The translations under genes were made by a program, and so were the position numbers. DNA of 31,537 nt from contig NW_003133847.1 in assembly GCF_000003605.2 (NCBI RefSeq), positions 109,814-141,350 of the forward strand, read 5' to 3'. Numbering within the stretch: the first letter of the stretch is position 1; each line of letters begins with the position of its first letter. Under the pieces are notes generated by a model. It did no database searches and was not told the origin of the DNA. It saw nothing but the letters and a program-made list of their open reading frames with translations. Shown here one piece after another: positions 3,634 to 28,659 of this stretch. Source of the DNA: Saccoglossus kowalevskii (Eukaryota; Hemichordata; Enteropneusta; Harrimaniidae).

Positions 3634-3828
3634 ATGGGAAAAGGAGGCGACAAAGCCGGGAACGCCGATATTCAGAAGACTTACACGTGGGACGAAATTC
3701 GCAAACACCACAGTCGCGATGACCAATGGATCGTTATCGAAGGGGAAGTTTTTGACGTTTCTCGCTGGAGTAGGATACATCCAGGCGGCAGTAAGGTTAT
3801 CAGTCACTATGCTGGGCAAGATGCATCG
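3634..3828 (+). CDS. Desaturase coding exon 1 (cytochrome b5 core, HPGG)
   Basis: Encodes residues 1-65. The ATG at 3634 has a good animal context (A at -3, G at +4) and is the first in-frame ATG after a TGA at 3523-3525. Reading runs open further upstream, but only from non-ATG codons. HPGG sits at residues 49-52. The exon ends in GQDAS followed by the donor gtaaat, a phase-0 intron. The same frame reads nine codons into the intron before a stop, so splicing is needed to complete the b5 domain. Confidence 0.93.
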
Positions 3829-6800
3829 GTAAATCTATATTTTTTGGTTCTCTAATATATATATCATGTGTTACTAATCTTAGTTTATGTCGAATCGTCC
3901 CACGCTTCCATCGCAGATCACAGACGCCTGAAACAACCATAGTTACCGGTACCGTGGAGCTCCATGCCGGTACTCACCGCGTCGATATATTAACAGTTAT
4001 GTCGTATATGATAAGCATGCCGATTGACTGTGACTATTAACTAAAAGTTTTGTTCAAACCCATATGCTGGTTTGAATATAAAACTATGTATATTTAAAAC
4101 TACTGTAAATTTTAATCAGAATCACCAAAAGTTTCTTGACCTGTCCTTACTACGAGCGCTATCTTTTATAAGTTCATAGTAGTTCACTCTTTTAATAGAC
4201 TGGCCCAATTTACACAATGGTTGGTAGTTTCCTTAGCTACGTGCAGTGTTCTATTTCACGTAGAAGCGTAAAGGGTCGGACCAATTAGAAATGGGGGGGG
4301 GCAGCATAGTAAGATTTCCTTTAATGTAGAAACCAATGACAGAATGTTACTATTAACAAAAAATGTAGTTTCCTCTTTCTTTTTTCGTGTTACTGTAAAA
4401 TATTTTCGCTGGGAATTAATTTTCACTATTTTCACTGTAAGAATGATTCAGCGAAAATAAAATCCAGTGAATATACCTTTTTTTCTATATTTTACATTCA
4501 ACTCGTCAAAAATCAGTGAAAATAAATTCCATACAAACCACCCAAAAAGTCTTTCCAGTGAAAATTAATTCCAGCTAAAATAAAGTTTTTACAGTATTTT
4601 ATGAAATAGACAGTTATGAGTATTTTTAATTTAGTGTATTGATTACATTCATTTGAGATAATCCAAGAATGTTGTTAGCTGTAAATATTTAAATTCAATT
4701 CAAACGAGGGGATGAAATTATATGTTGCGTTCACGCACAGCTCCTTAGCACGGGCTAAGAGGTCAAATTCCTTAGCCCGTGCTAAGAAAACGTGCGTGAA
4801 CGCTTAGCACAGGCTAAGGAATGCTAAGTACGGGTTAAATCTGATCCGAATTTAAGACGCAGTCTAGACCTTAGCACGGGCTAACGAAGTATGCGCGAAC
4901 GCTTAGCCCAGGGCTAAGCGCCCTCTGCGGCGACCTTTGGGTGTGAAAATTGTCCCATGTTCAGATAATGACACTATTCCACCAGTCATTACTCCGCGCT
5001 TGCTTCCACACTAATCGAGTCACTGTAGTAGAGCGTACAGCAGCTCCAATCGTAGACAAAATAAATTTGGTTCGCTGTCTACGACATGCATTAATAAAAC
5101 TCTGTATTCTGTTACGCCCGTTGTATTCTGTTTATGTGCATCCAAATAAGTTTGGTCCGTCTTCTCTCTCATTCCTGTGCACGCCGCTTCAAAATTAGCA
5201 CGAAACATGCCAGCAGCAGAAATAGAACCTTGCGCGTGTCATCCATTTTTCGTTCATAAATAGCGGCTTACCAAAGGTCACCGACTAATGGCACCCCTTA
5301 GCCCGTGCTAACGGCTGGCCCTCCCTGTGCGTGGACGCAATTGGGTCTAGCCGAAATGCAAATATGCTAGATAAGCCTAAATCAGCTTAAATCTTAGCCC
5401 GTACTTCATGTAACGTGAACACAACTATAGTCATTCACCTGTCCTAATTAAAAAACAAACAAAAGAAAACATTTGTAGAGTTCAAGGTCGAAATTTGCAT
5501 ATGTGTGCTTCCCAAAACTTTTCTAAAGAACTATGAGAGCAGTAATCCGGTATTTGACACATCTATACAGATAGTCAAATGAAATATGTTCATGCTCTGA
5601 CATGTACATCACAAGCGCTAACACATAATACTTTATTTTGACTTTTTTTAACAGATATATTCATTAAAGGGATACCGTTTGGTGCACCATCAAAACAACA
5701 TTTTTATGTTTTTGTTTCTTCAGGTTTTTATTTGAGTACAAAAAAAATATTTACATGATTTTGAAGATATCTCTTGCACTTCCAAAAATTTTATTAAATG
5801 CTATAATGGTTAAATGTTTACTGTAGGGTCTATAAACAGATTTAATTTTGCAAGAGGATATATTTTCTTGAATTTTATAAGTTGTGGGAAAAAATTAAAA
5901 TTTTGCAGCATTGAGATTCCAGAGAGAATGGAGAATATCTAGGGCTAAAGTTTTCCTATTTTTTATTTTATTTTATTTATTTTTTATCATTATATATATA
6001 TATTGTGTAAATCAATGCTTTGATTTGTGATTTAGTTAAAGCGTGGTGGTCGCCGCGAATTTTATGTAAACAATGTATTTTACACACGTTGTATACGTCG
6101 CTATGAGTCCCATATCGAACAGATCGCGGCACGACTGTCGCCTAAATAACCTACTATTCATGTAAAAAGCATATGATAATCAAATCCTATCATGCATCTC
6201 TAAAAATATGAAATTGAAATATATTTTGGGTTGAAATGGACAATATGGATAACTTTGAGAACTAAATCAAAATAACTTCAAATATTATTTTCATAGTAGA
6301 TGTCTATCTATACATACAGATATATGATTAACCTGAACTAAATATTTGTTCAAATTAAATTTTATCTACTGTGGAATACTTTATTTTCGCTAGAATTAAT
6401 TTTCGCTGAAAAGGCTTTTTGGGCGTTTTGTATGGAATTTATTTTCACTGATTTTGGATGAGTATTATGTGAAATATAGGGGAAAAAAAAGTATATTCGC
6501 TAGATTTTATTTTCACGGCATCATCCCTTCAACGAAAATAGCGAAAATAAAATCCAAGCAAAAATAAAGTATTCTACAGTATCATGTATGCAAATGTGCA
6601 TGTATTTGTTGAATGATTCAATTCAAGATAAGTAAATAACAACCATTTTAATGTTAAAAATTCATCGACATCAAGCATTTCTGCCATTTCAGAACCAAAT
6701 CTTGGATGTGTGTGTAAAAAAAAATTTCAAACCTAGTACATACTGAACATTATGGGACCTTGATAAACATAATTTTGTTTTTCTGATCAAATTCGTAATG

Positions 6801-9800
6801 GCCGACTGGTGGCCATTTTGTTTTAAATAATTGTTTATTCTGAGGCCATAAGTTTGACATTCCATGACTGTTTATGTTCAAACTTTATATATTTTTTAAA
6901 CTTGATACCTCACAGAGACTATGTAATGCAATTACTTGTTGTTAAAGAATTATCATAATTTTATTTAGTGAAGACTTGTTACTATGAGTGAACAGGTAAA
7001 CTATTAATGAGGTTTTATAATCACAGCAAATGCGACTCCATCGCATCAGCCAGAGAATGGATTTGTTGTTCACACATGTCAAAGCCTCTGCTTTGTACAC
7101 ATAGCGACTGTGTTTATGTAGCTTGGAGAGTGGTTTTTCTAGCATCAATTTGGCAGGTCGATGCTCTTTGAATGATTGTGAATCAAAAAGGTAGATTACT
7201 GGAAAGTTATGGTAACAGTATATCTTTTTAAAACTCTCAGTCTAGTATGAACAAACTTTGCTATCCCCCCCCCCCCTTCCTTGGATGATTCGGATTTGGT
7301 CTATCCCTAAACAGTATGTAATTTATGCCATCCACTCCATGAAATGGCTTGTACATAAAATGCCTGCCACACCCACCTGCTTTCAGCACACACAAACCCA
7401 CCATACAATCATTTGAATGCAAATTGTAACTTTTGTCTGTCTTTCACAAAATAAACTTATGAGTGTTTAAAAAATTTGAAAAGAGACCTGTAGTGAATTA
7501 CGTCCGTTTGCGATATCACTTCCCTTACGATGCAATTACAAAACTAAAATTGGCATAATTGAAACTATATTGACAACACATGCATTTGAGTCAAGATATA
7601 TACAAGGCAGAATTTGATTCGCTAAAAAAAACTGCCAACAAACAAGCTGCTCTGTGATTGGTCAGAATGTTAGGTGTCAGGTATGGGTAGCCAATCAGGA
7701 ACAATCTTGTGAGTAGCTTTGCATTGACTCGTCACATGTGACATTGGAAAATTGACCAATGATGCATGGATTGGATATTTGAACAGAACCACCTGTTGAC
7801 ATAGTTGACCAATCAGGCATGGGTTTGGATGGATGGCAACTCACTGTATGTTTATTCACATGAAGAATATGCTAATCATTAAGTTTTATAGAACTTTTGA
7901 GAACAAATTTAAATCAATTAAAAAATTCAGAAAGTTGCAACATGTACTGCACCTAACTTTTCGAATCACCATCTTAGAAATAATAATCCAATCCAGAATT
8001 GGGCTTGATTACAGTAGTTCATACAAAGTGAACAAATTTTTGTTAAAACAAAATAATCTTGAAAATATTTTTTATGACATGTGAAAAATATTTCATGTTT
8101 AATTTTTTAGGGGAAAATCCAACATTTGTTAATTTCCAAAAACAAAATATTCAATATACTTTGTGCACAAATATTATCTGGATTGGTCCAGGTTGTCATT
8201 TTTTTTATTAATCGATATATATATGATTCAAAGTACATAGTTGTACGTGTAATTTACTGTATAGTCAATGGAAGTTCATTGAACTTTGACCCCCTTGACT
8301 GGTATTGAAAACTTGATGTCTTTACATAACTTTAATAGCATATTGATACATTGTTATAAGTGCATACCACTACACTTGAATAAATCAGAACAAAATAAAT
8401 CAAAACGCAAATTTTTCCAATTTTGAACCCAAAGCACATGTAAGAAATGTTTGCTTAGGAGATATAGTTAAAACAACTTTGTACAAACATAAATCTTTTA
8501 GGCTTATCGCGTCTCTTTAACCTTTTCACCACCAGTTTCCTCTTTTAATCACAAATTCACAAAATAGTCCAGTTTATAGTCTGCATTCTTTTCAGAAGAT
8601 TGGGACAAAGTAGCAAATTTTGGGTAAAAACTGAGAATTGACGCAAATTTTGTCTGTTAGCTCCCAAAATTAGGTTTCATTTCCAAAAATATTGAAGAAT
8701 ATGAGAAAAAAGTGCAGAAAATTAATGGTTATTTAATGGTTAGTACCCCAGTGTTATTAGACAATTTTAAGCACTGTAACAGTTAGCTCAATTCTTTAGT
8801 TTTATTTCTATTTGGAATAATTTTTCACACATTTCATCTCATTAATGACTAATTAACAAATATCTGAATGCCATAATTGTTTCTGCTAAAATTTTGGTAC
8901 AATATTTTTGACAAATTTTTTTTTTTAATTTTTCTGTAACTTCTTGGTTAATTTTAACTAAAAATATTACTGCTGAAAAGTGATGAAAATATGATTTATA
9001 TTATGAGTTTAATTTTTCTGTATATGTCTGTTGTTTTTGTTTTTTTAATTGACTTTACATTGTTCCATATCATGTACTTGAATGATAAAAAAATATTACA
9101 TCACTCCTTTGACACGGTGATTATACTGGTACGTGTGGAATCAGGTGTGCAAAAATGCAGTGATCATTTTTTTTGCACATGTAAGATCAAAGTTCGTTTC
9201 TATGCAGGCAGAATTGTTGCTAAGGCGTTTTTTAACTCATAACAATAGATACTTTGCACAGTAAAGTTACAGAGTTAAATATTGTTGAACAAGTCATTTT
9301 CAATGACATAGTCCCTGTCTGTTAGATATATATACATTGTATGACCTATTGTGTGATGTATGTGTTAAGTTTGAACTTGATTGGTTCAGGCATGTATGAG
9401 TTGTAGAAGCATCACCAAACAAGATGACCACCAATCAACCATTTTGGATTTTCTTGGGTGACAAAAATGCATGTGTCTTGTCCAATATGCTGTCTGATGT
9501 ATGTGTGTGGTTTGAATTTCATTGGTCCAGGTATGTTGAATATATGTATATGGATCAGGGAATTCCTTTTTTGAAATAAAATGGCCACCAGTTGACCATT
9601 TTGAACTCAATTAGAAAAATATAATGGAGTGCATCAAGATCACATTATATTCATTGTATGTACCATGTGATTGAACACAATCCGTCCATACGGATATCTA
9701 TTGTTGTCCATACGTCCATATGGTGTTCATGTCAGTTTCTCTGGAATGCAATGACTGTTACAGTTTTGTCTTAGCACAAGCATAGTATAACAAGAGATAC

Positions 9801-12800
9801 ATCAGCAACACATTTTTTTTGAGCCAATTAAAATTCACTAGTAGATAGTGTAGTCATCATGCCGCGCATGTGCGACATTTGTGTTGATAAACATTGATTT
9901 TCCCACAATCCAATGCACTCTTCTAATGCAAGTATGAAGTTTGATCTGGGTGCGACTTGCACAGCTGTTGACTCATTTTGATGTCCTCTAATCACCTAAA
10001 AATATCTAATTAAAGCTTGGTAACGTCTCAGTTTGATCTGCACAACAGCCAAAGTCGCCATCTTCGTTTATATGTGACCCATATATCTCACGCATGCATG
10101 GCGTGATGACTACCACTCTCTAAAACTTGTTCATTTTGAATTGAAAACAAGTTTAGGCATTACAGTCATTACGCCATGTCCTGTTCGATATGGGACTCAT
10201 AGCAGCGTATACAACATGTGTAAAATACATTGTTTATTTACATGAAATTTGAACACATGCTAAAGCATCTGTACTGTATTAAGGTCTCTTGTCAACGTGC
10301 TAGTGTAACTCATATCATTATATTTTTGGGGGATTTTGTTTAAAAGGGAAGTGTACCACGTATGGAATTTGGAACTTAAATATGGCTTAATGTCATCTAT
10401 ACATTATGCAAATACAGTTGTGAAAATTCATCATAAGTTGTTTCACTGATGTATGGTGATCTTAAGAAAACCAGGAAGTACTATATTTATTATGCAACCA
10501 TATATTATTTTTATGTAATAGTATATTGACCACGAACTTTCCATTACTTTTGCATATTATTTTTATATTGGCAAGGCTTTGTTAATTTTTCTATGTTTTT
10601 TTTTCTTCCCAATTTAGAACGTCTTTGGAGCATTTCATAAGCTTTGTTAATTTATCTATGTTTTTTTTTCTTCCCAATTTAGAACGTCTTTGGAGCATTT
10701 CATAAGCCACAAGACTTGCAGAAAGTTCGGAAATATATGAAGCCAATTCTTATTGGTCGAGTGGCGCCGGATCAGATGAATATTGCAGATATCGACAAAG
10801 ATTTTAAAGAACTTAAACAGCGTGCAGTGAAAATGGTAACAATTGACTTGCATCATTATTTGTAGCGTTTCGGTCGATAAACAACTTTGAGGATTTTAAC
10901 TATTTTGGGTTCCTAGTATGTTGTGATAGTCATTAAACTGTTTAATTTTTGTCGCTATCAATTTTGAAGTTCAAGACTTCCAGGGCATGAAATTTTGTGA
11001 AAATAACTAGAGCTCACTGTCATTCCTTCCCAATGAAATGTGACAAAAGTGTTTTTTTTCCAACTTGCAACATTTACAAAAACTTTCTCTCACATATTTT
11101 CACTGAATTATAATTATTCATGAATTAAAAACATAAGCCTGCACAAAAAACCGAAATCATTCCATTGAAGGGAGTTTGTTGTGCAGGCATGTCTCGTGGA
11201 CATTAACAATCAGCCAAATCTTTACGAAAATTTTTCAAGATTTACGATGTCAAATCTAAAATTTACTTGGATATTTGAAAGATAATATTTGTGATTATTG
11301 CATGTTTCTTTACAAACGAGACAACTGAAAGTATGATATACTAAGACAAAAATAATATTACCTGCATGTCAAGTATCTATTAATCTGCCCTAGCTGTTGA
11401 CTCCCTTTTATTGAACCCACTCCCCTATCAAAAATAATGGAAGCTCCCAAATTTGTTTTTTAATAAATTTTCAATGCCTTCTTTTTAGCTTGACTAATTT
11501 TTTTTTTTCTTTTACAGAATTTATTCAAGCCCAGTTACTTTTTCTTCTTCATGCAGTTTGCGATGATCATGGCACTCCAGACCATAGCGTATCTTAATTT
11601 CATTTACAATGGAGTTCACTGGTATACGTTTATTGTAACGACTCTTCTCTGGGGAACAGCGCAGGTATGTGTTTATAGCGCCTTCACTCATATAATTTAA
11701 ACTGCAAATGATTAAGCCTAAACAAAATTCACTTATTTTATCTTTTGTTGATGAATTATTTAAATCTGCAACATTTTTGCGCCTGTCAGCATTTTAGCAA
11801 CAACAAAAATATTTCTTCATTTTTGAAAAACATTTTGACCAGAACAATGTTTTTATTTTTAAATTATCTTAAAAATTGTGCTTTGATTTAGATTTTTTTA
11901 TGATTTTTTTATTTTTTTTTATTTATATAAGCGCACATACACTACTAATATAGCAAATACTGAATTAAAAAAACACCAATAAAGTTGCGGGTTTATTTTG
12001 TGAAAGATGACTTCGAAGCTCAAAGCTTTAAAGGGCGGTGGTTGTCACGTCATGCCCTGTTCGATATGGGACTCATAGCATCGTATACAACACATGTTAA
12101 ATATATTGTTTGTTTACATGAAATTAGAACTTGTGTTGCATGACAACCACTGTCCTTCAAACCAACTTTATATAAAGTGTGAAATAAAATTACCTCTGTT
12201 CTTTAAATTTTAGGCTCAAGGTGGTTGGTTACAGCATGACTTCGGTCACATTTCGGTATTCGATAATACGAATTTGAATCGCTGGGTACAACGCATTTTT
12301 ACAGGAGCATTCAAGGTAAGTCTTATAAACTGATTCTTCCAATATTTTCTGGAATTGTTGATCTGTATGTCATCGGCTGATTGGTCAGTTTAGGTGACCT
12401 ATCAGTTCACGCTGGTTGTCTGCTAGCCTGACAAGTTTGTGTGAGTTGCGCCCTCTGCAGTGCTTCAAACCCAACACATGCCTGACAGAACGATGTAGTT
12501 TTTCACTTCCCCCGACGATTTGTTGTTGGTACCAATCAAATTGCAGGAACGTCAGATAGTGACAGCTATTAAAGTGTAACCATTCACGGCAGAGTTTATT
12601 ACTGCCCAATGTTTATCATCATGTGAAAACAGTCTGATTTTTGCCGACAATGCAAACACGGCTTTGTTACCATGGCCACCAAAATGAATATTCACTGAAA
12701 CTAATTGCAAGAAGGCGTGAACTTTGCGAATTCGCAGTATTGATCTTGCCAACGAGACATATACTATTCTGTCAGGCGTTAGTGAGGTCTGAAGCCGTTC

Positions 12801-15800
12801 GGTCGGCGAAGGCGGCACTCACGTCTACATGTCATGTCTGCGTGCAAATATTTTTTGTGTATTTTTTATAATTCATGTATTTTTAAATATAATATCAACT
12901 GCTTTTATATTTTATAATAATTTTGTTGCAGTGAAACCCTTACCATGATCTTAAAAACACATACCTTGAAATCTGTATTGGAAAGTGCATCCATTATTTT
13001 CAACAATTGCGAACCAACATTCAGACAAAATCTGATTTTGAGTGAGAATTTCACAATTTTGTCATTGGTCAAATTTGATTATTCATTTGTCCTCATTTGC
13101 CAGATCAGATATGGTGTCCAAGATCGTGGGATTTTGAATGCCAACACATCTGCCTGTATAATAAAGTATATTTTATCTTCTCACAAAGCCTATAATATGA
13201 CTCACGATCGTCAATAACACTATAATATTTCAGTCATTGAGTTTGTATTCTTTGTCATTTCAGGGAGGTTCTGGACTTTGGTGGAATCACATGCACAATC
13301 AACACCATGCAAAACCCAATGTGGTAAGTCACTATTGAGAAAATTGTTACCATAGCAACAAAACCACTTTTTGACATGGAATTGGCTAACTTTGATGTGA
13401 CATGGAAAATAGGAAAAACAAAGATAAGACTAAAAAAAGTTATGTATAGTAGTAACCATGACAACACATATTTTAATATTTATATAGTATTTTATAGAAC
13501 TACACTTATATATTAAAAAAGAAATGAAATTAGTTTACATTTAATCCAGTTGTGCAAAAAAAAAAAATTTACTGGTGATCCAGCACATCAGTTGAAAATA
13601 TGCATATCAGAGCTTTTATGAAGAAATCTTAATATAATGACAGTTTTTAAATTGAAATAAAATATCACTTGTGCACATCAATTTTGGAAAATAACTTAAC
13701 CATAATTTTTTTCCTGAATCTTAAAATAAAAAAATTTTGTGATCAACTTCGTTTTTAGATGGATAAAGATCCTGATGTTAGAATTGAAATGCTTTTTGTA
13801 GTCGGTGATAAGATGCCGTTGAAGGTAGCAGAGAAAAAGTCCTATATCCTACCATACAACTGGCAACACAAGTATTTTCCTCTAAGTAAGTACAATTCAA
13901 TAACTATTCAAAACAGTAGGTGTCTTACAGCTTTGCTGCATATACCAGTGACCAGCTTTTACAAACAATCAGAAGCAACACTTTTCAAACTGATTTACTG
14001 TCAAATATTTTAATTTTATTTGAAATTTATTTTCACTATTTTCACTGAAGGCATGATTCAGTTCAAATAAAATCTAGTGAATATAACGTTTTTTCTATAT
14101 TTTCAAGTCATCAAAAATCAGTGAAAATAAACTCAATACAAAACACCCAAAATGTATTTTCAGTGAAAATTAATTCCAGCTAAAATAAAGTATTTTACAG
14201 TAATAATACTTGTATTAGTTTCACAGCATCTGAATAGACCATAGATGCAAATGGTCACTGAGATTGTGTTAAGAATAAGAGCCACAACTGTGTTTTTTTT
14301 TTTCATAATGTTTACACTTCCAATACCACGGTTACGTAGATCATTGGACATGAGTTTTTTACAGTGCATTAACAATATTTTGTGCAAATTCATTTCTCTA
14401 TTTAAAGTGGAAAGCTTGTCACCAAGCGGTGATAACAACGCAAAATATGCAAAGGCTCATGGGAAGATGTTTGTAAACAATGACACTATGTCTATCTGTT
14501 GCATACACCCTCACTTAAAGCGAGGGAGTCGTCACCTGTGCATGCGTCAGATGGCCATACCCATGAGCCTTTGCGTTTTTAGCATGTGTTGTTATCGTCG
14601 TTTGGGACTCAATTCCTGAGTGTACGCAAGTGACGACCCTCTCGCTTTAAAATTAAAAGTAATTTACACCTCCCAAATGAGTCGTTCATCTCTCTCTCTC
14701 TCTGGTGTTGATATGATAAAAGGGTGATGTTTGCCATGCAACGTGCATTCGAATATCGCGTGAACAAACAAAAATTATTTTACATTAGTATTCTTCGTAT
14801 GAAACCCATATGACATGCACAGTGACATCACTTGCCCTTTAACTAAATACTGTATAATTCTGCAAAAGACGAATGCTCTTCTGGAAAATTTGTAGCAACG
14901 ACCTTTCACTGAGATTGTTGTATCAAGTGTCAACAACCTTCGTGACCTCATGATTGCATTCAAAGTACAGTATAGCCATAAATTTTATCAGTTTTGGCAT
15001 TGATAGTACCGTCGTGTTTGATATCATGGAAAAATTCTCCATTACCATGGAAACTAATTTCTATATTTGCATTCTGCCATTGTAATTTGGGCTCACCTGA
15101 TCGCTTATAGATAACGTTGAGATAATGGAAATCGGGCGAGTGTGTGTTAACTCGTAAAGTGTCTTCCATTGTCTCATATCAACAGTTATATGTATATGAG
15201 TAACAATGACAACATTTATATTTGATTTTAATACTTGTGTATTGTTTTCCTACTGTAGCTGTGGGAAAAAAATAAACAACACTCACATTTAAGGAAGATT
15301 GCAGCTTACAACACTTTTTGGTGAAGAATTTTTGAAAATTTGCTAAATTATTTTTTGCGATTTGCTTTTTTAAATATCAGTATCAGTATAATCAGTATAA
15401 CTAAATTATACTTGTAGCAGCCTCAGAAAATTTGCATACTATTCTGCCTAAGCAAGAATAACGAGTATGCAAATTATCTTTGGCTATAATGTAATATTTT
15501 CATATTTTTTGTGGGTATTTTGGAAGTTGAAAAACAATCATGTTACAGTCATATTTTACTCCGTGAAATACACACGTACCATCTCTATTTCAGACCATTT
15601 TCATCTTTTTCAACTGGAAATCCATGTTTCTACGCTGTCTTAAATAGTTCTTCTAGCTGCCCTTTTTTGTACCCACCCACACTCACTCTGCTATCGCTGA
15701 AATTTTTTTAAAATATGCTGCTGACTCCTCCTGGGTTGCATGTCTACAGGTGCTCTTTTGATTTATATTTTTGTCCTACCCTCGCCGGTTGCTTTGTAGG

Positions 15801-17310
15801 TTACGCATGCGCAAATAGAATTACATTGCGTCTGACAGTAATTCGGGAATTGTATGTATTTTGTCAACCAAAGATGGGTTTATATGCTATGAGGAAATTG
15901 CAAAATCCTCATTTCTATAGAAACGAGTTTAAGTCACCCATTTGACCCTTTCGCTCAGCAAGTTATCAAGAGCTTGTAGTGTATTTTTTTAAATTTCCAC
16001 ATTTCAAATGGGTCCTATAATGAGTGTCAAATAATTTTGTCTTCAAGAAGGTTAGTAGTGAAAATTAAATGGTTTACAGCATACTGTATATTTGAAATTA
16101 GTTAAAGTGCGCCCCCTACAGTGTGATTTCATTGTGATTTTGTTTATTTTTCAGTTGGACCTCCACTGCTGTTTCCAGTGTACTTCCAACTAACTATAGC
16201 CCGTTATTTCTGGCAGAGAAAGAATACTATGAAAGTGGTAAGTAATGAAAGACTCAATTCAGTGTCTATACAAAAGTGTGGAACTGCATTGAATGGTGAT
16301 ATATGGTGTAGCTCACATCGATTTAAATTATTATGTATAATTTCAAGATAGTTTCTCTCAAATTAACATCAGCAGAAACAAAAGAATATCACCAGAGTTT
16401 TGTAATTAATCTGATAATAATTAATAATAATTGGCAATAATTAATGCTACCTAGTGATGTCTGGTGAAATCAACGTAAATTAAGTATCGTATCGTGAAAT
16501 AATAATAGAAATCAATTTCCATGGTCCAAAACAATTGCTGAAATAACGCCAAATATTAATATATTATTGTGTCGCCTGGTATGCTAATTATTGTTGAATG
16601 AGAGTTTTATTATTTTACTTGTGGTGATGTTTTTCATTTGCTTATATTTTCTAAATTTGTTTTATTTCAATAAATTTTTTTGAGCAACTGAATAATAAGA
16701 CTGAAAATAAACACATAAGTTTGCTAAAATGAGCAATTATTACCGTAATCCATAGTTGCAGATGGATTTTCTAGTAGTGTATACATTGAAAAATAGTTTT
16801 TCAGTATGCAACATCTGTGTTATGCATTTTCGATCTGTCCTTTATTAGGTCATACTGTATGTATGTGATACTTTATTTACTGGTTTTAATATGCAAATAT
16901 TCAAAATGGAACTTCATACATAAATAAACGGCTAAATTTTTCTGAAGTGTACATTATTTATTTCAGCTTTCTCATGATGTGTTGCCTGTAAATTTGAAAT
17001 TTCTAAGAGTTGACACTTATTAAAAACAAAAGTATCAACTTATAGCCAACAGAGGGCAGTGTAGCATGGAATTTAGATCTTGATGTTCTTCGATGAGGGA
17101 GAAAGCTGTTGATACAAAGAGAAAGAAAAACTTATAGTAAAAAAATTTTCAGTTTCAACCCTTTGAGCACCATTGTTAGCTTTTGACATCTACAAAATTA
17201 TTTTATACAGTCTGCATCAAATATTGATAAAAACAAATTTTTTTAACAAAAATAAAAAATATATCTGAAACTGTCGTTATGGTCCAAAGCAATTAAGAAA
17301 TTTAGTTCAA

Positions 17311-17369
<59 letters not shown>

Positions 17370-20355
17370 AAATAAATAAATTAAACAAATAAACAAACAA
17401 ATAAAATATTGTTTTGTATATTGCAGGAGATTTTTCTTTTCTCGCTGTATTACATCAGCCTTTGTTACATTTTTGTTCCAATTATTGGAATCCTAGGAAC
17501 GCTGCTTTTCTATGAACTCACTCGGTAAGTTTTTTTTTATTTCTTTTTTAATTTATTTTAATTAAAGAGCCACAGTATAGTGAACACACAAGGTATATCA
17601 CACACATTGTAACCATTTCGGGCCAAAAAAACAAGAAAAGTTTAAAAATAGTTATTAGCTAAAAATATGATACTGTAAAATACTTTAATTTAGCTGAAAT
17701 TAATTTTCGCTGTAAAGACATTTTGGGTGTTTTGTATGGAATTTATTTTCACTGATTTTTGACAAGTTGAATGTAAAATACAGGAAAAAATGTATATTCG
17801 CGGGATTTTATTTTCACTGAATCATTCCTCCAGCAAAAATAGCGAAAATTAATTTCAAGTGAAAATAATGTATTTTACAGTATGTTAAAAGTAGACATTC
17901 TGACCTAATTTTCCACTCATTTCATTATGAGAGTTTTGAAGGGTTTTATCCCTTAAACAAACGTAACTTCAATGAAAACAAAAGCCTCATATTTCAGTGA
18001 GTGGCACAGTATTAACTTTAAATGTAAAGGGGAACCTTCCAAGCCCAGGGATTGCACCAAAGAATCATGGGACACTATTGTTTATGTTGTTTACAATGTT
18101 AATCTATCCTTTGTTATCCATTGTAATTTTAATCCAGAAAGTAAATTTGTTGTGAGATTAGGCTCAACTGGAAGTGCCCCTTTAAATACATTTACATAAT
18201 TTTTTTTTAGAATTTGTAGCAGTGTGCATTTCCATAATTATTTGAAAATGCAAAAATCTCACAATAATATTTTTCATTTTTTTGTATGAATAATTCAACA
18301 GGTGAATATATTTTTTTTTGACAGGGTGATTGAAAGTTCATGGTTTACATGGGTGGCCCAGTCCAACCACATTCCAATGACAATTGACCAAGACCTGGAA
18401 AGACCATGGGTTCCTCTACAAATGCATGCAACAAGAAATCTTCAGAAATCACCTTTTAATGATTGGTTCACAGGACATCTGAACTTTCAGATTGAACATC
18501 AGTAAGTTAGGGGGTTTGCAAAAAAATTCAACGAGTTAAGGGGTATGTTTGAACAATTGGAAAGTAATTCAAAAGAACTTCTTGTACTGTAGAATACTTT
18601 ATTTTCGCTTGGAATTTATTTTCGCTATTTTCGCTGAATGGATGATTCCGTGAAAATAAAATCCAGCGAATATACTTTTTTTCCTCTATTTCACATTAAA
18701 TTCATCAAAAATCAGTGAAAATAAGTTCCATACAAAACGCCCAAAAAGCCTTTTCAGCGAAAATTAATTCCAGCGAAAATAAAGTATTCCACAGTATGTA
18801 TGTGTATTGTTCACAAGAACTCAGAACTTGATTGAGAATCAGTATGTTAAGGAGTTGGCATAAATAACAATGATTTATTTGTTTGCAGTTTGTTTCCTAC
18901 AATGCCACGTCATAATTTATATAAGATAAAGCCATATGTGAAAGAGCTGTGCCTAAAACATGGTATAGATTACCAAGAAGTTTCCTTGTCAAGGGCTTTC
19001 AAGGACATTCTAAGGTAAGAAATGTTACCAGATAACTCTTTGATAAAAACAAATGAATTTCCTAATTAAACATTGAGGGCGTATTTGACATGAAACCCAA
19101 TGAGCTTCGTCTCCTCATACCACTCTTGACCATGTGATCCATTGTTCTGACCATGTGTTTATTTCTGTGAATTCACACTTGGACTTTTGTCTGAGATTTA
19201 GCCACGTCGGATCCACAGCGTTGTTAGAGTATACATATATAATCGGGTGTCAGCTGCCCACTCAACATCTTCACGGAATCTGCTATAGCAAAATGTGATG
19301 AATGCATGAAATGTACATCCATACACAAGCAATAGCCGAACTTCAATTCCCCTCACACAATATTATAACCAAATTGCACAAAATTCAAAATGTAATTTTC
19401 ACATATAAATTGAGGTTCTGGCAGTTATGGCTTATCTATTTTTATGCAAAACAATGTACATTTCAATTTGCTTCACAACCACCTCATTTTGTTCCACCTT
19501 ACTCTGACACGCTGCTGTGGATCGGCGACTATCTGAGACTGTAGATTTTGTAATCGTCACATTTCTTTTTCATTTGCATATTGGTAGTGCATATGCAGAT
19601 TAGTAATTCAGACACTTGTTAGTGTCCGATATTTCTGAACTTATAGCTTGGCCAGGTGTCAAGGTTTGAAATTTTGAGGTGAATGAGAGTTATTTTCAGA
19701 ACTATTGAAGCCTTGCATTGTAGCAAATATTAAAACAAAATTTGACTTGACAAACCATGACTATACTCCCTACTCTATGATGAATTTGATGGGAATGGCT
19801 TTTCACAAATATGAAATTAATTGCTGTTTCATCTTTGACTCATGGTTGTTGTAGAATCAGCATTCTATAAAATACTTCATTTTTGCTTGGACTTAATTTT
19901 CGCTATTTTTCGCTGAAGGAATCTAGCAAATATATCTTTTTCCTATATTTTACATTCAACTAAAAATCAGTGAAAATAAATACAAAACACCCCAAAACTC
20001 TTCAGCGAAAATTAATTCCAGTATTTTACAATAAACAAAACAATTTATTGTATTTGTAAACATAGATTCAAGTTAAGGGTTGTCATGGAAAATAGGGAAA
20101 TTGAAACCCAGTGAAGATTTAATTTAATTGCAATAAATATACTGTTATATAATTAAATTTAACTGCCCTAGAAACCAATTTTGTTGTTCTAGCAACTGAC
20201 TTTTTTGGGAGCTTAGCCATTAACCAGTTTTACATGAGTATGATTTACGGATATAAACAATGCAATGTCTGGATTTTTTTTTTCACAGTTCTCTCAGGCA
20301 CTCAGGTGAACTATGGTTTGATGCTTACTATAACCTCCACGACAAACACGACTAA
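3634..20355 (+). CDS. Cytochrome b5-fused front-end fatty acyl desaturase (FADS1/FADS2-like), 11 coding exons, complete
   Basis: The spliced coding sequence joins 3634-3828, 10683-10835, 11518-11664, 12214-12315, 13264-13323, 13759-13885, 16155-16237, 17427-17524, 18325-18501, 18889-19014 and 20289-20355: 1335 nt, 444 residues plus stop, the same length as human FADS1 and FADS2. Seen: N-terminal cytochrome b5 domain (about residues 15-90) with HPGG at 49-52 and a second probable haem ligand His72; histidine boxes HDFGH (173-177), HNQHH (210-214) and QIEHH (377-381); hydrophobic membrane segments near 123-146, 150-165, 260-282 and 290-320; and LFPTMPRHN just after box III. Family knowledge: these ER membrane enzymes take electrons from cytochrome b5 reductase through the fused b5 domain. 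A di-iron site held by the histidines inserts a cis double bond between an existing bond and the carboxyl end, in polyunsaturated fatty acid synthesis. Whether this one is delta-5, -6, -8 or -4 cannot be read from sequence, so I give no FADS number. Confidence 0.95.
4391..4597 (+). mobile_element. CTGTA-family MITE, copy 1
   Basis: About 207 bp with ends TACTGTAAAATATTTTCGC and a matching inverse ending TTTTTACAGTA. Inside are repeated blocks such as GCGAAAATAAAATCCAG and CAGTGAAAATAAATTCC. Flanking TA dinucleotides fit a TA target duplication as in Tc1/mariner, by inference. There is no coding capacity. Confidence 0.75.
4724..5425. mobile_element. Palindrome-rich foldback DNA element, possibly Harbinger-derived
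   Basis: About 700 bp with inverted ends: left GTTGCGTTCACGCAC followed by TTAGCACGGGCTAAG, and right (reverse complement) GTTGTGTTCACGTTAC followed by TACGGGCTAAG. TAT flanks both ends. The 16-bp imperfect palindrome CTTAGCACGGGCTAAG or a close variant recurs about eight times (near 4745, 4771, 4802, 4822, 4870, 4901, 5297, 5395). On the minus strand from 5246 a 25-codon frame begins [15 protein letters not shown] and runs into basic residues before a stop. That style recalls Harbinger transposase N-termini but is weak evidence. Confidence 0.6.
6038..6143 (-). mobile_element. Small inverted-repeat element ('GTTCGATATGGGACTCAT' family), copy A
   Basis: About 105 bp with ends AAAGCGTGGTGGTCGCCGCG and, inverted, TTTAGGCGACAGTCGTGCCG. 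The core is the reverse complement of copies near 10169 and 12030, sharing GTTCGATATGGGACTCATA and GTATACAAC...TACATTGTTTA. Non-coding. Confidence 0.6.
6367..6581 (-). mobile_element. CTGTA-family MITE, copy 2
   Basis: About 215 bp, inverted relative to copy 1. It starts TACTGTGGAATACTTTATT and ends AAAGTATTCTACAGTA, with internal TGGAATTTATTTTCACTG and GCGAAAATAAAATCC blocks. It lies in desaturase intron 1. Confidence 0.75.
7265..7276. repeat. Poly-C tract
   Basis: A run of about 12 C residues in intron 1. It is simple low-complexity sequence, prone to length error in assembly. Confidence 0.8.
7655..7815. repeat. Cluster of CCAAT/ATTGG motifs in intron 1
   Basis: Five CCAAT or ATTGG sites occur within about 160 bp (GATTGGTCAG, CCAATCAGG, TTGACCAATGATGCATG, GATTGGAT, TTGACCAATCAGGCATG). 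The phrases resemble the TTGACCAATCAATGCA core of the 66-bp minisatellite 17 kb downstream. They may be relics of the same repeat. Confidence 0.35.
8519..8740 (-). mobile_element. Decayed AACCTTTTCACCACCA element, copy B
   Basis: It opens AACCTTTTCACCACCAG and contains TCAGAAGATTGGGACAAA and CCAAAAATATTGAAGAATATGAG. These match, in inverse orientation, the element at 22089-22313. The right end is too diverged to place exactly. Confidence 0.45.
9343..9612 (+). repeat. Two-unit degenerate tandem repeat, about 137-bp period
   Basis: Units start near 9343 and 9480. Each reads TGATGTATGTGT, then TTTGAA, ATTGGT(T/C)CAGG and later GACCATTTTG or AACCATTTTGG. Related phrases with TGGCCACC and CCATTTTG occur near 6797 and 23250, so it is a dispersed family. 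Non-coding. Confidence 0.5.
10098..10256 (+). mobile_element. 'GTTCGATATGGGACTCAT' element, copy B, with stem-loop
   Basis: The shared core spans about 10169-10247. To its left TGGCGTGATGACT pairs with AGTCATTACGCCA, and inside that TAAAACTTGTT pairs with AACAAGTTTA, giving a nested hairpin at 10098-10181. It is in desaturase intron 1. Confidence 0.5.
10576..10705 (+). repeat. 65-bp tandem duplication of the exon 2 splice acceptor
   Basis: 10576-10640 and 10641-10705 match at 64 of 65 positions (T10589 versus A10654). Each copy holds the pyrimidine tract, CAATTTAG and the first 23 bases of exon 2. Splicing at the upstream AG (10616-10617) would read [10 protein letters not shown] then TAA at 10648-10650 and also shift the frame, so the downstream AG is the productive one. 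The near-identity suggests a recent duplication or an assembly artefact. Confidence 0.9.
10683..10835 (+). CDS. Desaturase coding exon 2 (end of b5 domain, linker)
   Basis: Encodes residues 66-116, starting NVFGAFHKP with the probable second haem ligand His72, then a charged linker ending VKM. The acceptor is the AG at 10681-10682 and the donor is gtaaca; both flanking introns are phase 0. The acceptor and first 23 exon bases lie in a 65-bp tandem duplication (10576-10705). Only the downstream copy gives an open frame. Confidence 0.92.
10836..11517 (+). other. Desaturase intron 2 with a small hairpin
   Basis: AT-rich intron of 682 bp. The only structure noted is an inverted repeat, GCCTGCACAAAAAAC at 11137 against its near-complement ending at 11188 (15 of 16 positions), with a loop of about 20 nt. 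No gene. Confidence 0.7.
11518..11664 (+). CDS. Desaturase coding exon 3 (first membrane segments)
   Basis: Encodes residues 117-165, beginning [11 protein letters not shown], the usual NLF start of the desaturase domain. It carries two hydrophobic stretches (about 123-146 and 150-165) and ends WGTAQ. The acceptor tttacag follows a long pyrimidine run and the donor is gtatgt. Phase 0 on both sides. Confidence 0.93.
11665..12213 (+). other. Desaturase intron 3
   Basis: AT-rich intron of 549 bp. It has poly-T/A tracts and, at 12030-12158, a small inverted-repeat element listed separately. No coding sequence. Confidence 0.75.
12030..12158 (+). mobile_element. 'GTTCGATATGGGACTCAT' element, copy C (best-bounded)
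   Basis: 129 bp with clear inverted ends: AAAGGGCGGTGGTTGTCA on the left and, inverted, GAAGGACAGTGGTTGTCA on the right. The core matches copies A and B. Too short to code. Confidence 0.65.
12214..12315 (+). CDS. Desaturase coding exon 4 (histidine box I, HDFGH)
   Basis: Encodes residues 166-199. It opens [12 protein letters not shown], giving the first di-iron histidine box at 173-177, and ends TGAFK. The acceptor is ttttag, the donor gtaagt, phase 0 on both sides. Family members read AQxGWLQHDxGH here, so the boundary is well supported. Confidence 0.94.
12316..13263 (+). other. Desaturase intron 4
   Basis: 948-bp intron. Its left half (12448-12822) is an inverted-repeat element richer in GC than the rest. 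The right half is AT-rich with no supported feature. The open frames on both strands within the element are short and unrecognised. Confidence 0.7.
12448..12822. mobile_element. Inverted-repeat element in intron 4
   Basis: The left arm from about 12460 reads TGCTTCAAACCC..CATGCCTGACAGAA. The right arm (12763-12800), inverted, reads GGCTTCAGACC..ACGCCTGACAGAA. The element is about 375 bp, GC-richer than the intron around it. Ends are approximate; class unknown. Confidence 0.55.
13264..13323 (+). CDS. Desaturase coding exon 5 (histidine box II, HNQHH)
   Basis: A 60-nt exon, residues 200-219, reading [20 protein letters not shown]. It supplies the HXXHH box II (210-214). The second position is Asn where vertebrate FADS proteins have Phe (HFQHH). 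The acceptor is tttcag, the donor gtaagt, phase 0 on both sides. Confidence 0.93.
13324..13758 (+). other. Desaturase intron 5
   Basis: 435-bp AT-rich intron between box II exon 5 and exon 6. No repeat element or coding sequence recognised. Confidence 0.7.
13759..13885 (+). CDS. Desaturase coding exon 6
   Basis: Encodes residues 220-261 plus the first base of codon 262. It begins [17 protein letters not shown], matching the KDPDV segment after box II in animal FADS, and ends in KYFPL. The acceptor is tttttag and the donor gtaagt, phase 1. The track to the stop at 14013 is intron read-through. Confidence 0.92.
13996..14202 (+). mobile_element. CTGTA-family MITE, copy 3
   Basis: 207 bp, starting TACTGTCAAATATTTTAA and ending AAAGTATTTTACAGTA, in the same orientation as copy 1. 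It has the internal TCAAAAATCAGTGAAAATAAA block. It lies in intron 6. Confidence 0.7.
14413..14651. mobile_element. Head-to-head pair of TTAAAGCGAG elements
   Basis: A complete element (about 14514-14651) has ends TTAAAGCGAGGGAGTCGTCA and, inverted, TTAAAGCGAGAGGGTCGTCA. Its left end abuts a second, inverted and end-truncated copy (14413-14520) recognisable by ACAACGCAAA..GCTCATGGG and GTAAACAATGACAC. The two share one terminal repeat, so the pair could fold into a long hairpin. Confidence 0.6.
14960..15169 (-). other. Unassigned minus-strand open frame in intron 6
   Basis: 69 codons, starting [20 protein letters not shown] and ending at a stop. The composition looks less AT-biased than the surrounding intron, and a donor-like GTGAGC follows the 24th codon. 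No domain recognised and no partner exon found. It may be a nested exon, transposon relic or chance. Confidence 0.15.
16155..16237 (+). CDS. Desaturase coding exon 7 (third membrane region)
   Basis: Completes Ile262 and encodes up to Val289. It begins [12 protein letters not shown], matching the IGPPLLIPMYFQ segment of human FADS2, a membrane region near which residues tune regioselectivity in fish enzymes. The acceptor is ttttcag and the donor gtaagt. It enters in phase 1 and leaves in phase 0. Confidence 0.92.
16238..17426 (+). other. Desaturase intron 7
   Basis: 1189-bp AT-rich intron. Apart from the microsatellite at its 3' end (17313-17404) no element or coding sequence was recognised. 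Confidence 0.7.
17313..17404 (+). repeat. (AATC)n / (AATA)n / (AACA)n compound microsatellite
   Basis: About 13 CAAT repeats, then AATA repeats, then AACA-like repeats. They end about 22 nt before the exon 8 acceptor. The run displaces the usual pyrimidine tract and branch-point region. Confidence 0.9.
17427..17524 (+). CDS. Desaturase coding exon 8 (fourth membrane region)
   Basis: Encodes residues 290-321 plus two bases of codon 322. It is almost wholly hydrophobic ([18 protein letters not shown]...) and ends YELTR across the junction. The acceptor ttgcag lies about 22 nt after a long AATC/AATA/AACA microsatellite, so there is little pyrimidine tract. The donor is gtaagt, phase 2. Confidence 0.9.
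17671..17882 (-). mobile_element. CTGTA-family MITE, copy 4
   Basis: 212 bp, starting TACTGTAAAATACTTTAA and ending TGTATTTTACAGTA. Same orientation as copy 2, opposite to copy 1. It contains TTTTGTATGGAATTTATTTT. Confidence 0.75.
18025..18184. mobile_element. Small TAAAGGGG inverted-repeat element
   Basis: 160 bp. The left end TAAAGGGGAACCTTCC pairs with the right end, inverted TAAAGGGGCACTTCC. The end sequence resembles that of the foldback at 21432-21850 (GTTAAAGGGGAAGTC), so they may be related. The overlapping 75-codon frame is not convincing. Confidence 0.45.
18325..18501 (+). CDS. Desaturase coding exon 9 (leads into box III, QIEHH)
   Basis: The longest exon after exon 1. It completes Arg322 and encodes residues 323-380 plus two bases of His381. 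Motifs: [16 protein letters not shown], then [15 protein letters not shown], family hallmarks. The last His of QIEHH is split across intron 9. The acceptor is ttttttgacag and the donor gtaagt, phase 2 on both sides. Confidence 0.94.
18502..18888 (+). other. Desaturase intron 9
   Basis: 387-bp intron, the shortest in the gene. More than half of it is a CTGTA-family MITE (18585-18796). The rest is unremarkable. Confidence 0.8.
18585..18796 (+). mobile_element. CTGTA-family MITE, copy 5 (well preserved)
   Basis: 212 bp with ends TACTGTAGAATACTTTATT and, inverted, TACTGTGGAATACTTTATT. Internal blocks TCGCTATTTTCGCTGAA and AATCCAGCGAATATAC are intact. With copy 7 it is the cleanest family member here. 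Confidence 0.8.
18889..19014 (+). CDS. Desaturase coding exon 10 (post-box III)
   Basis: Completes His381, then [15 protein letters not shown] and on to residue 422 plus two bases of codon 423. LFPTMPRHN is nearly invariant in animal front-end desaturases. The acceptor is tttgcag and the donor gtaaga, phase 2. Confidence 0.94.
19189..19539. mobile_element. Inverted-repeat element in intron 10
   Basis: The left arm reads GTCTGAGATTTAGCC..GGATCCACAGCG..TTAGAGTA. The right arm, inverted, reads GTCTCAGATAGTCGC..GATCCACAGCAGCG..CAGAGTA. Arms are about 40 bp and the element about 350 bp. The 80-codon frame inside is not supported. Confidence 0.6.
19864..20033 (+). mobile_element. CTGTA-family MITE, copy 6 (truncated)
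   Basis: About 170 bp with the family's blocks (TTAATTTTCGCTATTTTTCGC, AAAATCAGTGAAAATAAA, GCGAAAATTAATTCCAG). Internal stretches are missing and the terminal ACAGTA is eroded. Confidence 0.65.
20289..20355 (+). CDS. Desaturase coding exon 11 (C-terminus and stop)
   Basis: Completes Ser423 and encodes [21 protein letters not shown], ending at TAA (20353-20355). The SGxLWxDAY pattern matches the end of human FADS2. The acceptor is tttcacag. There is no C-terminal KKXX-type ER retention motif. Confidence 0.93.
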
Positions 20356-21325: not shown

Positions 21326-21375
21326 NNNNNNNNNNNNNNNNNNNNNNNNNNNNNNNNNNNNNNNNNNNNNNNNNN
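21326..21375. other. Assembly gap (50 N)
   Basis: A run of exactly 50 N, so the true length and content are unknown. It lies 56 bp left of a long foldback, a structure likely to break assembly. Confidence 1.
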
Positions 21376-21431: not shown

Positions 21432-21850
21432 GTTAAAGGGGAAGTCAAGCCAAACAACATAATGCTCCCCAAGGAAAGAGCTCCACAAATGTAGGAGAAT
21501 GCAATTTACAGTTTTTGTATATCACTTTTCTTTCTCTACATATTCGACTTTTCACCATTATTAAGTAGTCCGCCAACTTGATTTTCCAGCAAAGGATTGT
21601 GGATAAAGTGTGACATCATAACCGCTGTTGTGAAAATTAAGAAAATGCTTTCAACAGTGGATATGATGTCATACTTTACCCACAATCCTTTGCTGAAAAA
21701 CCAAGATGGTGGACTACATAATACTGATGAAAAGTTGAATATCTAGAGAATGAAACGTGATATAAATAAATTGTAAATTACATGTCCTTACATTTGCCGA
21801 GCTCTTTCATCTGGGAGTATTATGTTGTTAGCCTTGACTTTTCCTTTAAC
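21432..21850. mobile_element. Foldback element with long arms
   Basis: About 419 bp. The left half (GTTAAAGGGGAAGTCAAGCC, ACAACATAATGCTCCC, GAAAGAGCTC, CAGCAAAGGATTGTGG) reappears inverted in the right half. Arms are near 190 bp around a short centre at about 21630-21655. Non-coding; target duplication not clear. Confidence 0.75.
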
Positions 21851-22479: not shown

Positions 22480-22692
22480 CACTGTAGAATACTTTATTTT
22501 CGCTTGGAATTTATTTTCGCTATTTTCGCTGAAGGGATGATTCCGTGAAAGTAAAATCCAGTGAATATACTTTTTTTTTCTATATTTCACATTCAACTCA
22601 TCAAAAATCAGTGAAAATAAATTCCATAAAGAATGCCTAAAAAGCCTATTCAGCGAAAGTTAATTCCAGCGAAAATAAAGCATTCGACAGTA
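22480..22692 (+). mobile_element. CTGTA-family MITE, copy 7 (well preserved)
   Basis: About 213 bp from CACTGTAGAATACTTTATT to AAAGCATTCGACAGTA, same orientation as copy 5 and very similar to it. It lies downstream of the desaturase. Confidence 0.78.
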
Positions 22693-24336
22693 TTATAATC
22701 AAATGAACATACTGTGCAATTTAAATTTGATTCTGAAATAAAAAAGTTGCTTTCCAAACACTGCTGTTTCTATAATATGTGACTGGTTGGGCGTTAATTC
22801 TACTCCCAGTAGTTTGAACGAAATCGTACCAGGCATGCCTGTGAAATGGTTTTGGTTGTGTTTTATTTGCGGGGGAGGGGGAGGGCAAAACTTGACTTGC
22901 TGTCAGTTAAAACTTCAATGATTCCAAAAACAAATCCATGTACATATGTATACCATTCAGCACCAAATCTGAATAGTGGACAAAGACACTTGAAAAATAA
23001 GGCAAAAGGGCCATTTGAAACAAGTCAAAAACAATGTTGAATGCATCAGTAACCCACTATGTCTGAAGTTTATGTTTGTAATAAATCAGCCCAAACACAC
23101 TCGAGAATTGGTTGATGATATGTTTGAAATTTGAGTATATTTAAAAAGAATGACTGCTAGCAAAACTTAAACAAATCCCCTAAATACAAACCATTTTGTA
23201 TGCCTGTGTACCAAATTTAAACTAAGTATTTACCAAACTATTGGGGACATATAACAAGTAAAATGACCACCTGACAGCCATTTTGAATGAAATTGCAAAT
23301 CACTGGGCGAGCATCAGGTGATAAGATGTAGTCTTTTATACCTTGTCTATGTACCACCTTGTAATGGTCCAAGCATGCATGCACACATAAACCACATAGA
23401 AAAAGTCTTCTTCGACCAGATCAGAAAAAAAACTCAATACAAGAGATAGCATTGTTTTTTTGTTTTTTTTAATATACCGCAATAAATTGTACAATAAATT
23501 AAAATAACAATCATTAATTTTGACCTTATTTGGAGTTCTACATGAACTAGGTCTTTTTATTAAAACCACCAGCTGTTGATAAATTAAGGATTCACTGGTC
23601 AGTTGCATTCTGGGGGAAAAAAAAGACTCCCTAGACTGGCCACATGACACATCTCCTTAACTGCACAAATATCTGTATCAAAACTCGCTAAGCATCAATA
23701 TACAACCGAACATCTAATAATAACTTTTAAAGGTGAATTTCACCTACTTTTTATTCTTATTTCTATAAATTGGTAGAAAGGGTTGTCAGTAGTAATCGAC
23801 CAAACACCGCAAAGAAGGAGGGCACCGAATAACCAATCAAATTATTTGACAAGTATTCAAAGAAACCAAAGAGTAAAAGGAAATCTACACAGTAAAGTAA
23901 TACAAAATTCTAAAATTACATAATGAATGATTAAAAATAACTAATAAAGAGTGAATATAAATACAAAAATTAATCAGAAATACAATTATTCTAGTCTTTT
24001 TTAGTTTGAAATGAGTTTTACAATGACAAAGAGAAATTGATCTCTAAATCAACTCAATGCCATTTGGGCATCCATGAGAAGGGTCGTTACCGGAGAAGGC
24101 GTCACTTTATTCTAAATTTTGGAATAAAGTTATTTACATAAAATTTCTCACAAATTGAAATCAAGTTGTGGGAGAATATAGTGCTAAAAGGTCGATGAAC
24201 TAAGTAGTTCCAATTTGTTTTAAGAAGGGACTTGCAGAAAAATTAATATACATACATATAACATATTGGTAGTAGTCAGTTTTCAAAGATCTTCTAAAAG
24301 CCAGTTGCACATATGTGGGCAAGATGGTAAATTTAA
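22693..24336. other. Intergenic sequence without a supported gene
   Basis: AT-rich, with one degenerate phrase around 23200-23300 (GTACCAAATTTAAAC, GCCATTTTGAATG) that belongs to the dispersed family also seen at 9343-9612. Open frames up to about 100 codons show no domain. Confidence 0.5.
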
Positions 24337-28480: not shown

Positions 28481-28659
28481 TACTGTAAAATACTTTATTT
28501 TCGCTTGGAATTATCGAGTGAAAATAAAATCCAGCAAATATACCTTTTTCCCTATATTTTACATTCAACTCATCAAACATAAGTGAAATAAATCCCATAC
28601 AAAATACCCAAAAAGTCCTTTCAGTGAAAATTAATTCCAGCTAAAATAAAGTATTTTAA
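28481..28659 (+). mobile_element. CTGTA-family MITE, copy 8 (internally deleted)
   Basis: About 179 bp starting TACTGTAAAATACTTTATT and ending AAATAAAGTATTTTAAA. About 30 bp are missing after the first block, and the terminal ACAGTA is lost. Confidence 0.7.

What the first reader, a model, noticed from the sequence alone, without database searches (positions are those of the whole stretch)
10576..10705. The exon 2 splice acceptor of the desaturase is tandemly duplicated, and the upstream copy is a poison acceptor
Two 65-bp copies, 64/65 identical, each hold a full pyrimidine tract, AG and the first 23 exon bases. The upstream AG leads to a stop ten codons on, truncating the product at 75 residues within the cytochrome b5 domain. 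Splicing machinery would see two nearly equal acceptors 65 nt apart, so the choice could set the level of productive mRNA, or the sequence may be a polymorphism or assembly error.
Basis: partly seen in the sequence, partly recalled or inferred. Interest (0 to 1): 0.72.

Follow-up and report, generated by a model that had tools for sequence, protein, structure and literature searches.

The report
Duplicated splice site in desaturase gene
A fatty-acid desaturase gene, probably of an invertebrate animal, carries a near-perfect 65-base head-to-tail duplication of one splice site, so the cell could splice to either copy and only the second gives a full protein; it looks like a recent, mostly neutral duplication rather than a control switch.

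Summary
Window 10576-10640 and 10641-10705 are a 65-bp tandem duplication, 64/65 identical. Each copy holds a possible branch site, the pyrimidine tract, the AG and 23 exon bases of exon 2 of an intact 11-exon, 444-residue front-end desaturase. Splicing to 10683 keeps the frame. Splicing to 10618 gives a stop after 75 residues, 185 nt before the next junction, so nonsense-mediated decay is expected. One match to the region was found in the 572-Mb own assembly.

Whether the upstream acceptor is used cannot be tested here. The cores (-28 to +23) are identical, so short-window models cannot separate them. Context leans to the productive copy: long flanking introns, and purine-rich exon after copy 2 against pyrimidine tract after copy 1. 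Human reporter data show no order preference between equal tandem acceptors.

Best reading: a young tandem duplication, or allele, across an intron-exon boundary, with mostly productive splicing and some wasted transcript. A regulatory role has no support; a local assembly error is not excluded. The kind is known: a potato RdRp gene has the same rearrangement. Interest is low to moderate.

The parts
3634..3828 (+). Desaturase exon 1 (ATG to donor TCG|GTAAAT), 65 codons, start of the cytochrome b5 domain
   Evidence: a paralogue on C3648 ends its exon 1 at the same codon with a GT donor
10576..10640 (+). Duplication copy 1: possible branch site TTAAT (A at 10585, -33), T-rich tract, AG at 10616-10617, 23 exon-2 bases
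   Evidence: the yUnAy branch-site motif is recalled
10641..10705 (+). Duplication copy 2, with the productive acceptor: possible branch sites TTAAT (A at 10650, -33) and TTTAT (A at 10654, -29; at this place the match exists only in this copy), AG at 10681-10682
10618..10650 (+). Reading frame from the upstream acceptor: [10 protein letters not shown] and stop TAA (10648-10650)
10683..10835 (+). Exon 2 (productive), 153 nt, phase 0 at both ends
   Evidence: the one exon-2 match found in the own genome
11518..11664 (+). Exon 3
12214..12315 (+). Exon 4 (HDFGH box)
13264..13323 (+). Exon 5 (HNQHH box)
13759..13885 (+). Exon 6
16155..16237 (+). Exon 7
17427..17524 (+). Exon 8
18325..18501 (+). 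Exon 9 (QIEHH box begins)
18889..19014 (+). Exon 10
20289..20355 (+). Exon 11 with stop codon

Best explanation
A recent small tandem duplication with 2-bp microhomology at the breakpoint crossed the intron 1 / exon 2 boundary of an otherwise intact front-end desaturase gene and copied the whole 3' splice site. The downstream copy stays joined to the full exon and is the productive acceptor. The upstream copy is a complete but orphaned acceptor whose use gives a frameshift and early stop, and such transcripts should be removed by nonsense-mediated decay. Most splicing probably goes to the downstream copy because exon definition favours the acceptor next to real exon sequence; a fraction is lost. 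Shown here: the duplication in the assembly, the gene model from sequence, the frames, identity of the two cores, one match to the region in the assembly. Inferred: that it is real DNA, recent and near-neutral, that the downstream site is preferred, and that decay occurs.
For: 64/65 identity, including the homopolymer T run, in an ungapped alignment points to a young event. The gene reads as intact: 11 exons, 444 aa, PF00487 E 1.5e-35, PF00173 E 8.7e-22, all three histidine boxes. Both introns flanking exon 2 are over 250 nt (6,854 nt from 3829 to 10682; 682 nt from 10836 to 11517; coordinates), the exon-definition class in PMC9225289, where the paper concludes that sites closest across the exon are favoured and that the upstream-acceptor preference is significantly reduced. 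The 65 nt after each AG differ: purine fraction 0.34 upstream against 0.57 downstream; GAA/GAG/AGA/AAG triplets 2 against 10. Core score alone does not predict use: 15 other AGs in intron 1 score as high or higher with a matrix built from this gene's nine other acceptors. The stop from the upstream site lies 185 nt before the first of 9 downstream junctions.
Against: No RNA-seq or reads were available. Core sequences from -28 to +23 are identical, and in a designed human library tandem acceptors of equal strength showed no order preference, so substantial upstream use is possible (PMC6783452). In the same paper adding an optimal branch point did not generally change the choice between tandem acceptors, which weakens any weight on the -29 difference. 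PMC9225289 reports an overall upstream preference for competing acceptors 20 nt or more apart before sorting by intron length. Local folding gave no useful difference between the two pyrimidine tracts (mean unpaired 0.62 and 0.66). These rules come from human data. The age is not measured: one difference in 65 bases allows a very wide range.
Confidence: 0.6

Rival explanations
1. The duplication is a local assembly error, such as two haplotype versions (differing at -29) laid in series, or a false tandem copy made in gap filling.
For: One difference in 65 bases is what two alleles might show; the assembly has a 50-N gap at 21326-21375 in this window; no reads could be examined. PMC4974935 names assembly error as the alternative to exclude for such a pattern.
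Against: One match to the region was found in the 572-Mb assembly, so no second haplotype copy is left over there (only the best candidates are scored). The unit is short and clean-edged with a 2-bp microhomology, as real tandem duplications often have (recalled). No such pair, real or false, was found in 139,095 readable control bases.
Confidence: 0.22
2. A functional poison acceptor: competition between the two equal acceptors sets, perhaps in a regulated way, the amount of productive desaturase mRNA through decay of the upstream-spliced form.
For: The upstream acceptor is complete and its use leads to an early stop well before further junctions. Equal tandem acceptors show no order preference in reporters. 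The only difference between copies adds a yUnAy branch-site match (TTTAT) in the productive copy.
Against: No RNA data and no test of conservation; near-identity suggests a young event, and exon context favours the downstream copy. One base difference in a motif as loose as yUnAy is weak evidence, and branch-point changes did not generally alter tandem acceptor choice.
Confidence: 0.12
3. Intron gain of the potato RdRp type: exon 1 is spliced to the upstream acceptor and a cryptic donor inside the duplicated exon piece is spliced to the downstream acceptor. With the only GT in the 23-base piece (10621) this would add three bases (one Asn) and keep the frame.
For: The same kind of rearrangement created a new, RNA-seq-supported intron in potato (PMC4974935). 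A 10621-10682 mini-intron (62 nt) would keep the frame (sequence).
Against: The three GT dinucleotides between the acceptors score -3.6, -1.4 and -5.2 against 7.0-12.7 for the gene's ten donors (the donor matrix was built from those same ten, which favours them).
Confidence: 0.03

Closest known systems
Potato RdRp gene PGSC0003DMG402000361: tandem genomic duplication across an intron-exon boundary (PMC4974935; passages and the Results and Discussion section read)
   Same: A tandem duplication containing the 3' end of an intron (putative branch site, pyrimidine tract, AG) and the 5' end of the next exon, placing two full acceptors in tandem.
   Different: There a cryptic GTAAG donor recruited from the upstream exon made a new intron with 106 RNA-seq junction reads, and the copies differ at ten nucleotides. 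Here the exon piece is 23 bases with no plausible donor, the copies differ at one base, and there is no RNA or read evidence.
Designed tandem 3' splice sites in human reporters (PMC6783452; passages and section 7 read)
   Same: Two acceptors of equal core strength in cis compete for one donor.
   Different: Synthetic, human-derived contexts, native acceptor distances 2-59 nt, -15 to +3 replaced; here natural, 65 nt apart and identical over a longer stretch.
BRCA1 partial exon 10 tandem duplication (PMC11839443; passages read)
   Same: Tandem duplication of an intron end plus an exon start; the mRNA contains the duplicated sequence with its intron piece and runs into an early stop.
   Different: 2,012 bp (395 intronic, 1,617 exonic), a disease allele. 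There the upstream copy carries a large exon piece; here only 23 bases.
Bivalve Fads genes, e.g. MulFadsB of Mulinia lateralis (PMC10970445; passages read)
   Same: Front-end desaturase with cytochrome b5 domain, HPGG and three histidine boxes; Table 1 gives 11 exons and 438 aa (the text says 10 exons), against 11 exons and 444 aa here.
   Different: The passages seen do not mention an acceptor duplication; sequences were not compared.

Membership tests
Tandem genomic duplication across an intron-exon boundary | Direct tandem copies containing intron end, AG and exon start | tested here: met
Tandem genomic duplication across an intron-exon boundary | Present in the DNA, not an assembly error (reads across both junctions) | not testable with these tools
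   No reads held; only that one match to the region was found in the assembly
Competing alternative 3' splice sites | Two complete acceptors (branch site, tract, AG) for one donor | tested here: met
   By sequence only: identical from -28 to +23; yUnAy matches at -33 in both
Competing alternative 3' splice sites | Both acceptors used in RNA | not testable with these tools
   No RNA-seq
Poison (unproductive, decay-coupled) splicing event | Premature stop more than 50-55 nt before a later junction | tested here: met
   185 nt before the first of 9 downstream junctions; the 50-55 nt rule is recalled
Poison (unproductive, decay-coupled) splicing event | Isoform exists and rises when decay is blocked | not testable with these tools
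   No RNA data
Intron gain by tandem duplication | A usable donor upstream of the new acceptor inside the duplicated stretch | tested here: not met
   Three GT sites score -5.2 to -1.4 against 7.0-12.7 for the gene's ten donors
Front-end fatty-acid desaturase | N-terminal cytochrome b5 with HPGG, FA_desaturase domain, HDxGH, HxxHH, QxxHH | tested here: met

The most novel reading that the evidence does not exclude
A natural, freshly made poison acceptor: an exact duplicate of a 3' splice site in cis that throttles a desaturase gene through decay, where the single substitution (-29, giving the productive copy an extra branch-site match) is an early compensating change that shifts the balance back to productive splicing.
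Probability: 0.08. Interest if true: 0.55.

Novelty: new member of a known kind. Interest (0 to 1): 0.28.

Why it matters
If real, it is a clean natural experiment: two acceptors identical from -28 to +23 in one gene, differing in position, exon context and one upstream base, with a stop codon reporting the upstream choice. RNA-seq of one individual would measure how far exon context and order decide acceptor choice in this organism. Intron-exon boundary duplications are also a first step in one route to new introns. Otherwise it is an ordinary small duplication, to be flagged to gene annotators because aligners may place the exon 2 start at either copy.

Tried and rejected
Considered and rejected: (a) chance similarity, excluded by 64/65 identity; control stretches of the same genome gave no such pair. 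(b) A mobile element carrying the repeat: in the window self-comparison the only match covering a whole copy is the other copy; the remaining matches to this part are 31 columns or shorter. The rest of the genome was asked only with the 301-bp region. (c) A link to the 27-bp minisatellite at 27200-28171, which shares AAGCTTTGTTAAWTTAT with the copy-1/copy-2 junction: the shared word is formed partly by the junction itself and copy 1 matches it with two mismatches, so coincidence is likelier; not tested further. (d) A new mini-intron of the potato type: no usable donor. (e) Different accessibility of the two pyrimidine tracts: no useful difference. (f) Dating or polarising the duplication with a paralogue: a paralogue exists on contig C3648 (exon 1 about 50% identical), but the exon-2 query found no second match at E up to 1, and its three fetched pieces hold no convincing exon 2 (one chance-level match, E 2.1). 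(g) Species: not identified; nothing here rests on it. 'Animal' or 'invertebrate' is inferred from the gene and composition, and comes from no call.

Limits: the acceptor matrix was built from nine sites of this gene, the donor matrix from all ten; both are crude. The control sample is small; 5 of its 20 stretches read wholly N and 3 more partly. Literature searches for the phenomenon by name are phrase searches of open-access papers only, some with capped lists. Searches gave 0 papers. Searches were on acceptor competition and on desaturases. Of the listed papers I opened PMC6783452, PMC11839443, PMC9225289, PMC4974935, PMC10970445, and of PMC2809761 only outline and abstract (not used). PMC2891723 and PMC2812944, seen in a listing only, have titles that bear on tandem duplication and gene structure and may hold further precedents.

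Full report
Observation. The one difference is T10589 against A10654, 29 bases before each exon start, and the first two bases of the unit recur after the second copy, a 2-bp microhomology. Each copy has a perfect match TTAAT at -33 to the branch-site motif yUnAy (motif recalled), the T-rich tract, TTTAG and the first 23 exon bases. Copy 2 has a further match, TTTAT, at -29, which copy 1 lacks.

Gene. I assembled 11 exons on the + strand from 3634 to 20355. They give a 444-residue protein without internal stops, with HPGG at 49, HDFGH at 173, HNQHH at 210 and QIEHH at 377. Pfam gives Cyt-b5 (8.7e-22, residues 18-92) and FA_desaturase (1.5e-35, residues 150-411). This reads as an intact front-end desaturase. 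The exon count and length resemble the bivalve MulFadsB (11 exons, 438 aa in Table 1 of PMC10970445, where the text says 10 exons; passages seen). A paralogue on another contig ends its exon 1 at the same codon with GTAAGT, so the exon 1 boundary is old. The organism was not identified; the window lies in a 572-Mb assembly of 4,830 contigs, and the 301-bp region around the duplication gave one match there, itself (only best candidates are scored). The exon-2 peptide gave one match at E up to 1.

Consequence of each acceptor. From 10683 the frame is kept. From 10618 the mRNA gains 65 nt, reads [10 protein letters not shown] and stops at 10648-10650: 75 residues, covering profile positions 1-56 of the 74-position Cyt-b5 model. 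The stop is 185 nt before the first of nine downstream junctions, so decay is expected by the usual rule (recalled).

Which acceptor would be used. From -28 to +23 the copies are identical, so any model reading only the usual -20 to +3 window must tie. A matrix from this gene's other nine acceptors gives 4.5 to both, ranks 68 and 69 of 1,433 AGs scored on the + strand of the window, and 15 other AGs in intron 1 score as high or higher, so core strength does not decide use here. Context differs. After the upstream AG come 23 exon bases and then the second intron end (purine fraction 0.34, two GAA/GAG/AGA/AAG triplets in 65 nt); after the downstream AG comes real exon (0.57, ten triplets). These triplet counts are a crude stand-in for exonic enhancers. 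The flanking introns are 6,854 and 682 nt. PMC9225289 (passages and section 9 read) reports that with long introns on both sides the upstream-acceptor preference is significantly reduced and concludes that sites closest across the exon are favoured, although acceptors 20 nt or more apart show an upstream preference overall. PMC6783452 (passages and section 7 read) found no order preference between equal tandem acceptors, and no general effect of an added optimal branch point on tandem acceptor choice, which counts against giving weight to the -29 change. Both are human data. I therefore lean to mainly productive splicing with an unknown unproductive fraction.

Origin and control. TRF on 20 stretches of the same genome (15 with readable sequence, 139,095 bases; 5 wholly N) found no tandem pair (up to 3.0 copies) of period 20-300 at 95% or more, and 13 of lower identity. 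So such young pairs are not everywhere, but the sample is small. The chance that a random 65-bp stretch in the window takes in the core of one of ten acceptors is about 1%, a post-hoc figure. An assembly error cannot be excluded; the authors of the closest published case I found checked reads for the same reason (PMC4974935, Results and Discussion read).

Comparison with the known. The potato RdRp gene has the same kind of rearrangement; there it became a new intron through a cryptic GTAAG donor recruited from the upstream exon. Here the three GT sites between the acceptors score -5.2 to -1.4 against 7.0-12.7 for the gene's donors, so that route is unlikely. A BRCA1 duplication of the same type, with a much larger exon piece, gave mRNA containing the duplicated intron piece and an early stop (PMC11839443, passages read). 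So both outcomes, read-through from the upstream copy and a new intron, exist in print; the present case adds a very short exon piece and near-identical copies. I file it as a new member of a known kind.

Verdict. Observation confirmed; interpretation partly supported. A regulatory poison acceptor is possible but unsupported. The finding is small, clean and easily testable with ordinary reads and RNA-seq.

Noticed in passing
4401-4597, 6367-6581, 14024-14202, 17670-17882, 18585-18800, 19862-20021, 22481-22696, 28496-28658: A dispersed repeat of roughly 200 bp with long inverted ends (TACTGTAGAATACTTTATTTTCGC... / ...GCGAAAATAAAGTATTCCACAGTA), eight places in this window on both strands. It looks like a MITE-type element; the label is mine and comes from no library.
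   Followed up: partly
10171-10254, 12047-12130, 6067-6122: A shorter repeat (up to 84 bp, 87-95% alike), two places in intron 1 (one of them about 320 bases upstream of the duplication) and one in intron 3 of the desaturase gene.
   Followed up: no
25103-26489 and 27200-28171: Two large minisatellites, 66 bp x 21 copies and 27 bp x 36 copies, downstream of the desaturase.
   Followed up: no
21432-21850: A long inverted self-match (421 columns, 82%), close to the 50-N gap at 21326-21375.
   Followed up: no
L031, L035, L029 (contig C3648): Pieces of a second front-end desaturase gene, 42-54% identical over the matched pieces, with the same exon 1 end. About 51 kb lie between its exon 1 and the next piece found; its exons 2 and 3 were not located.
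   Followed up: partly
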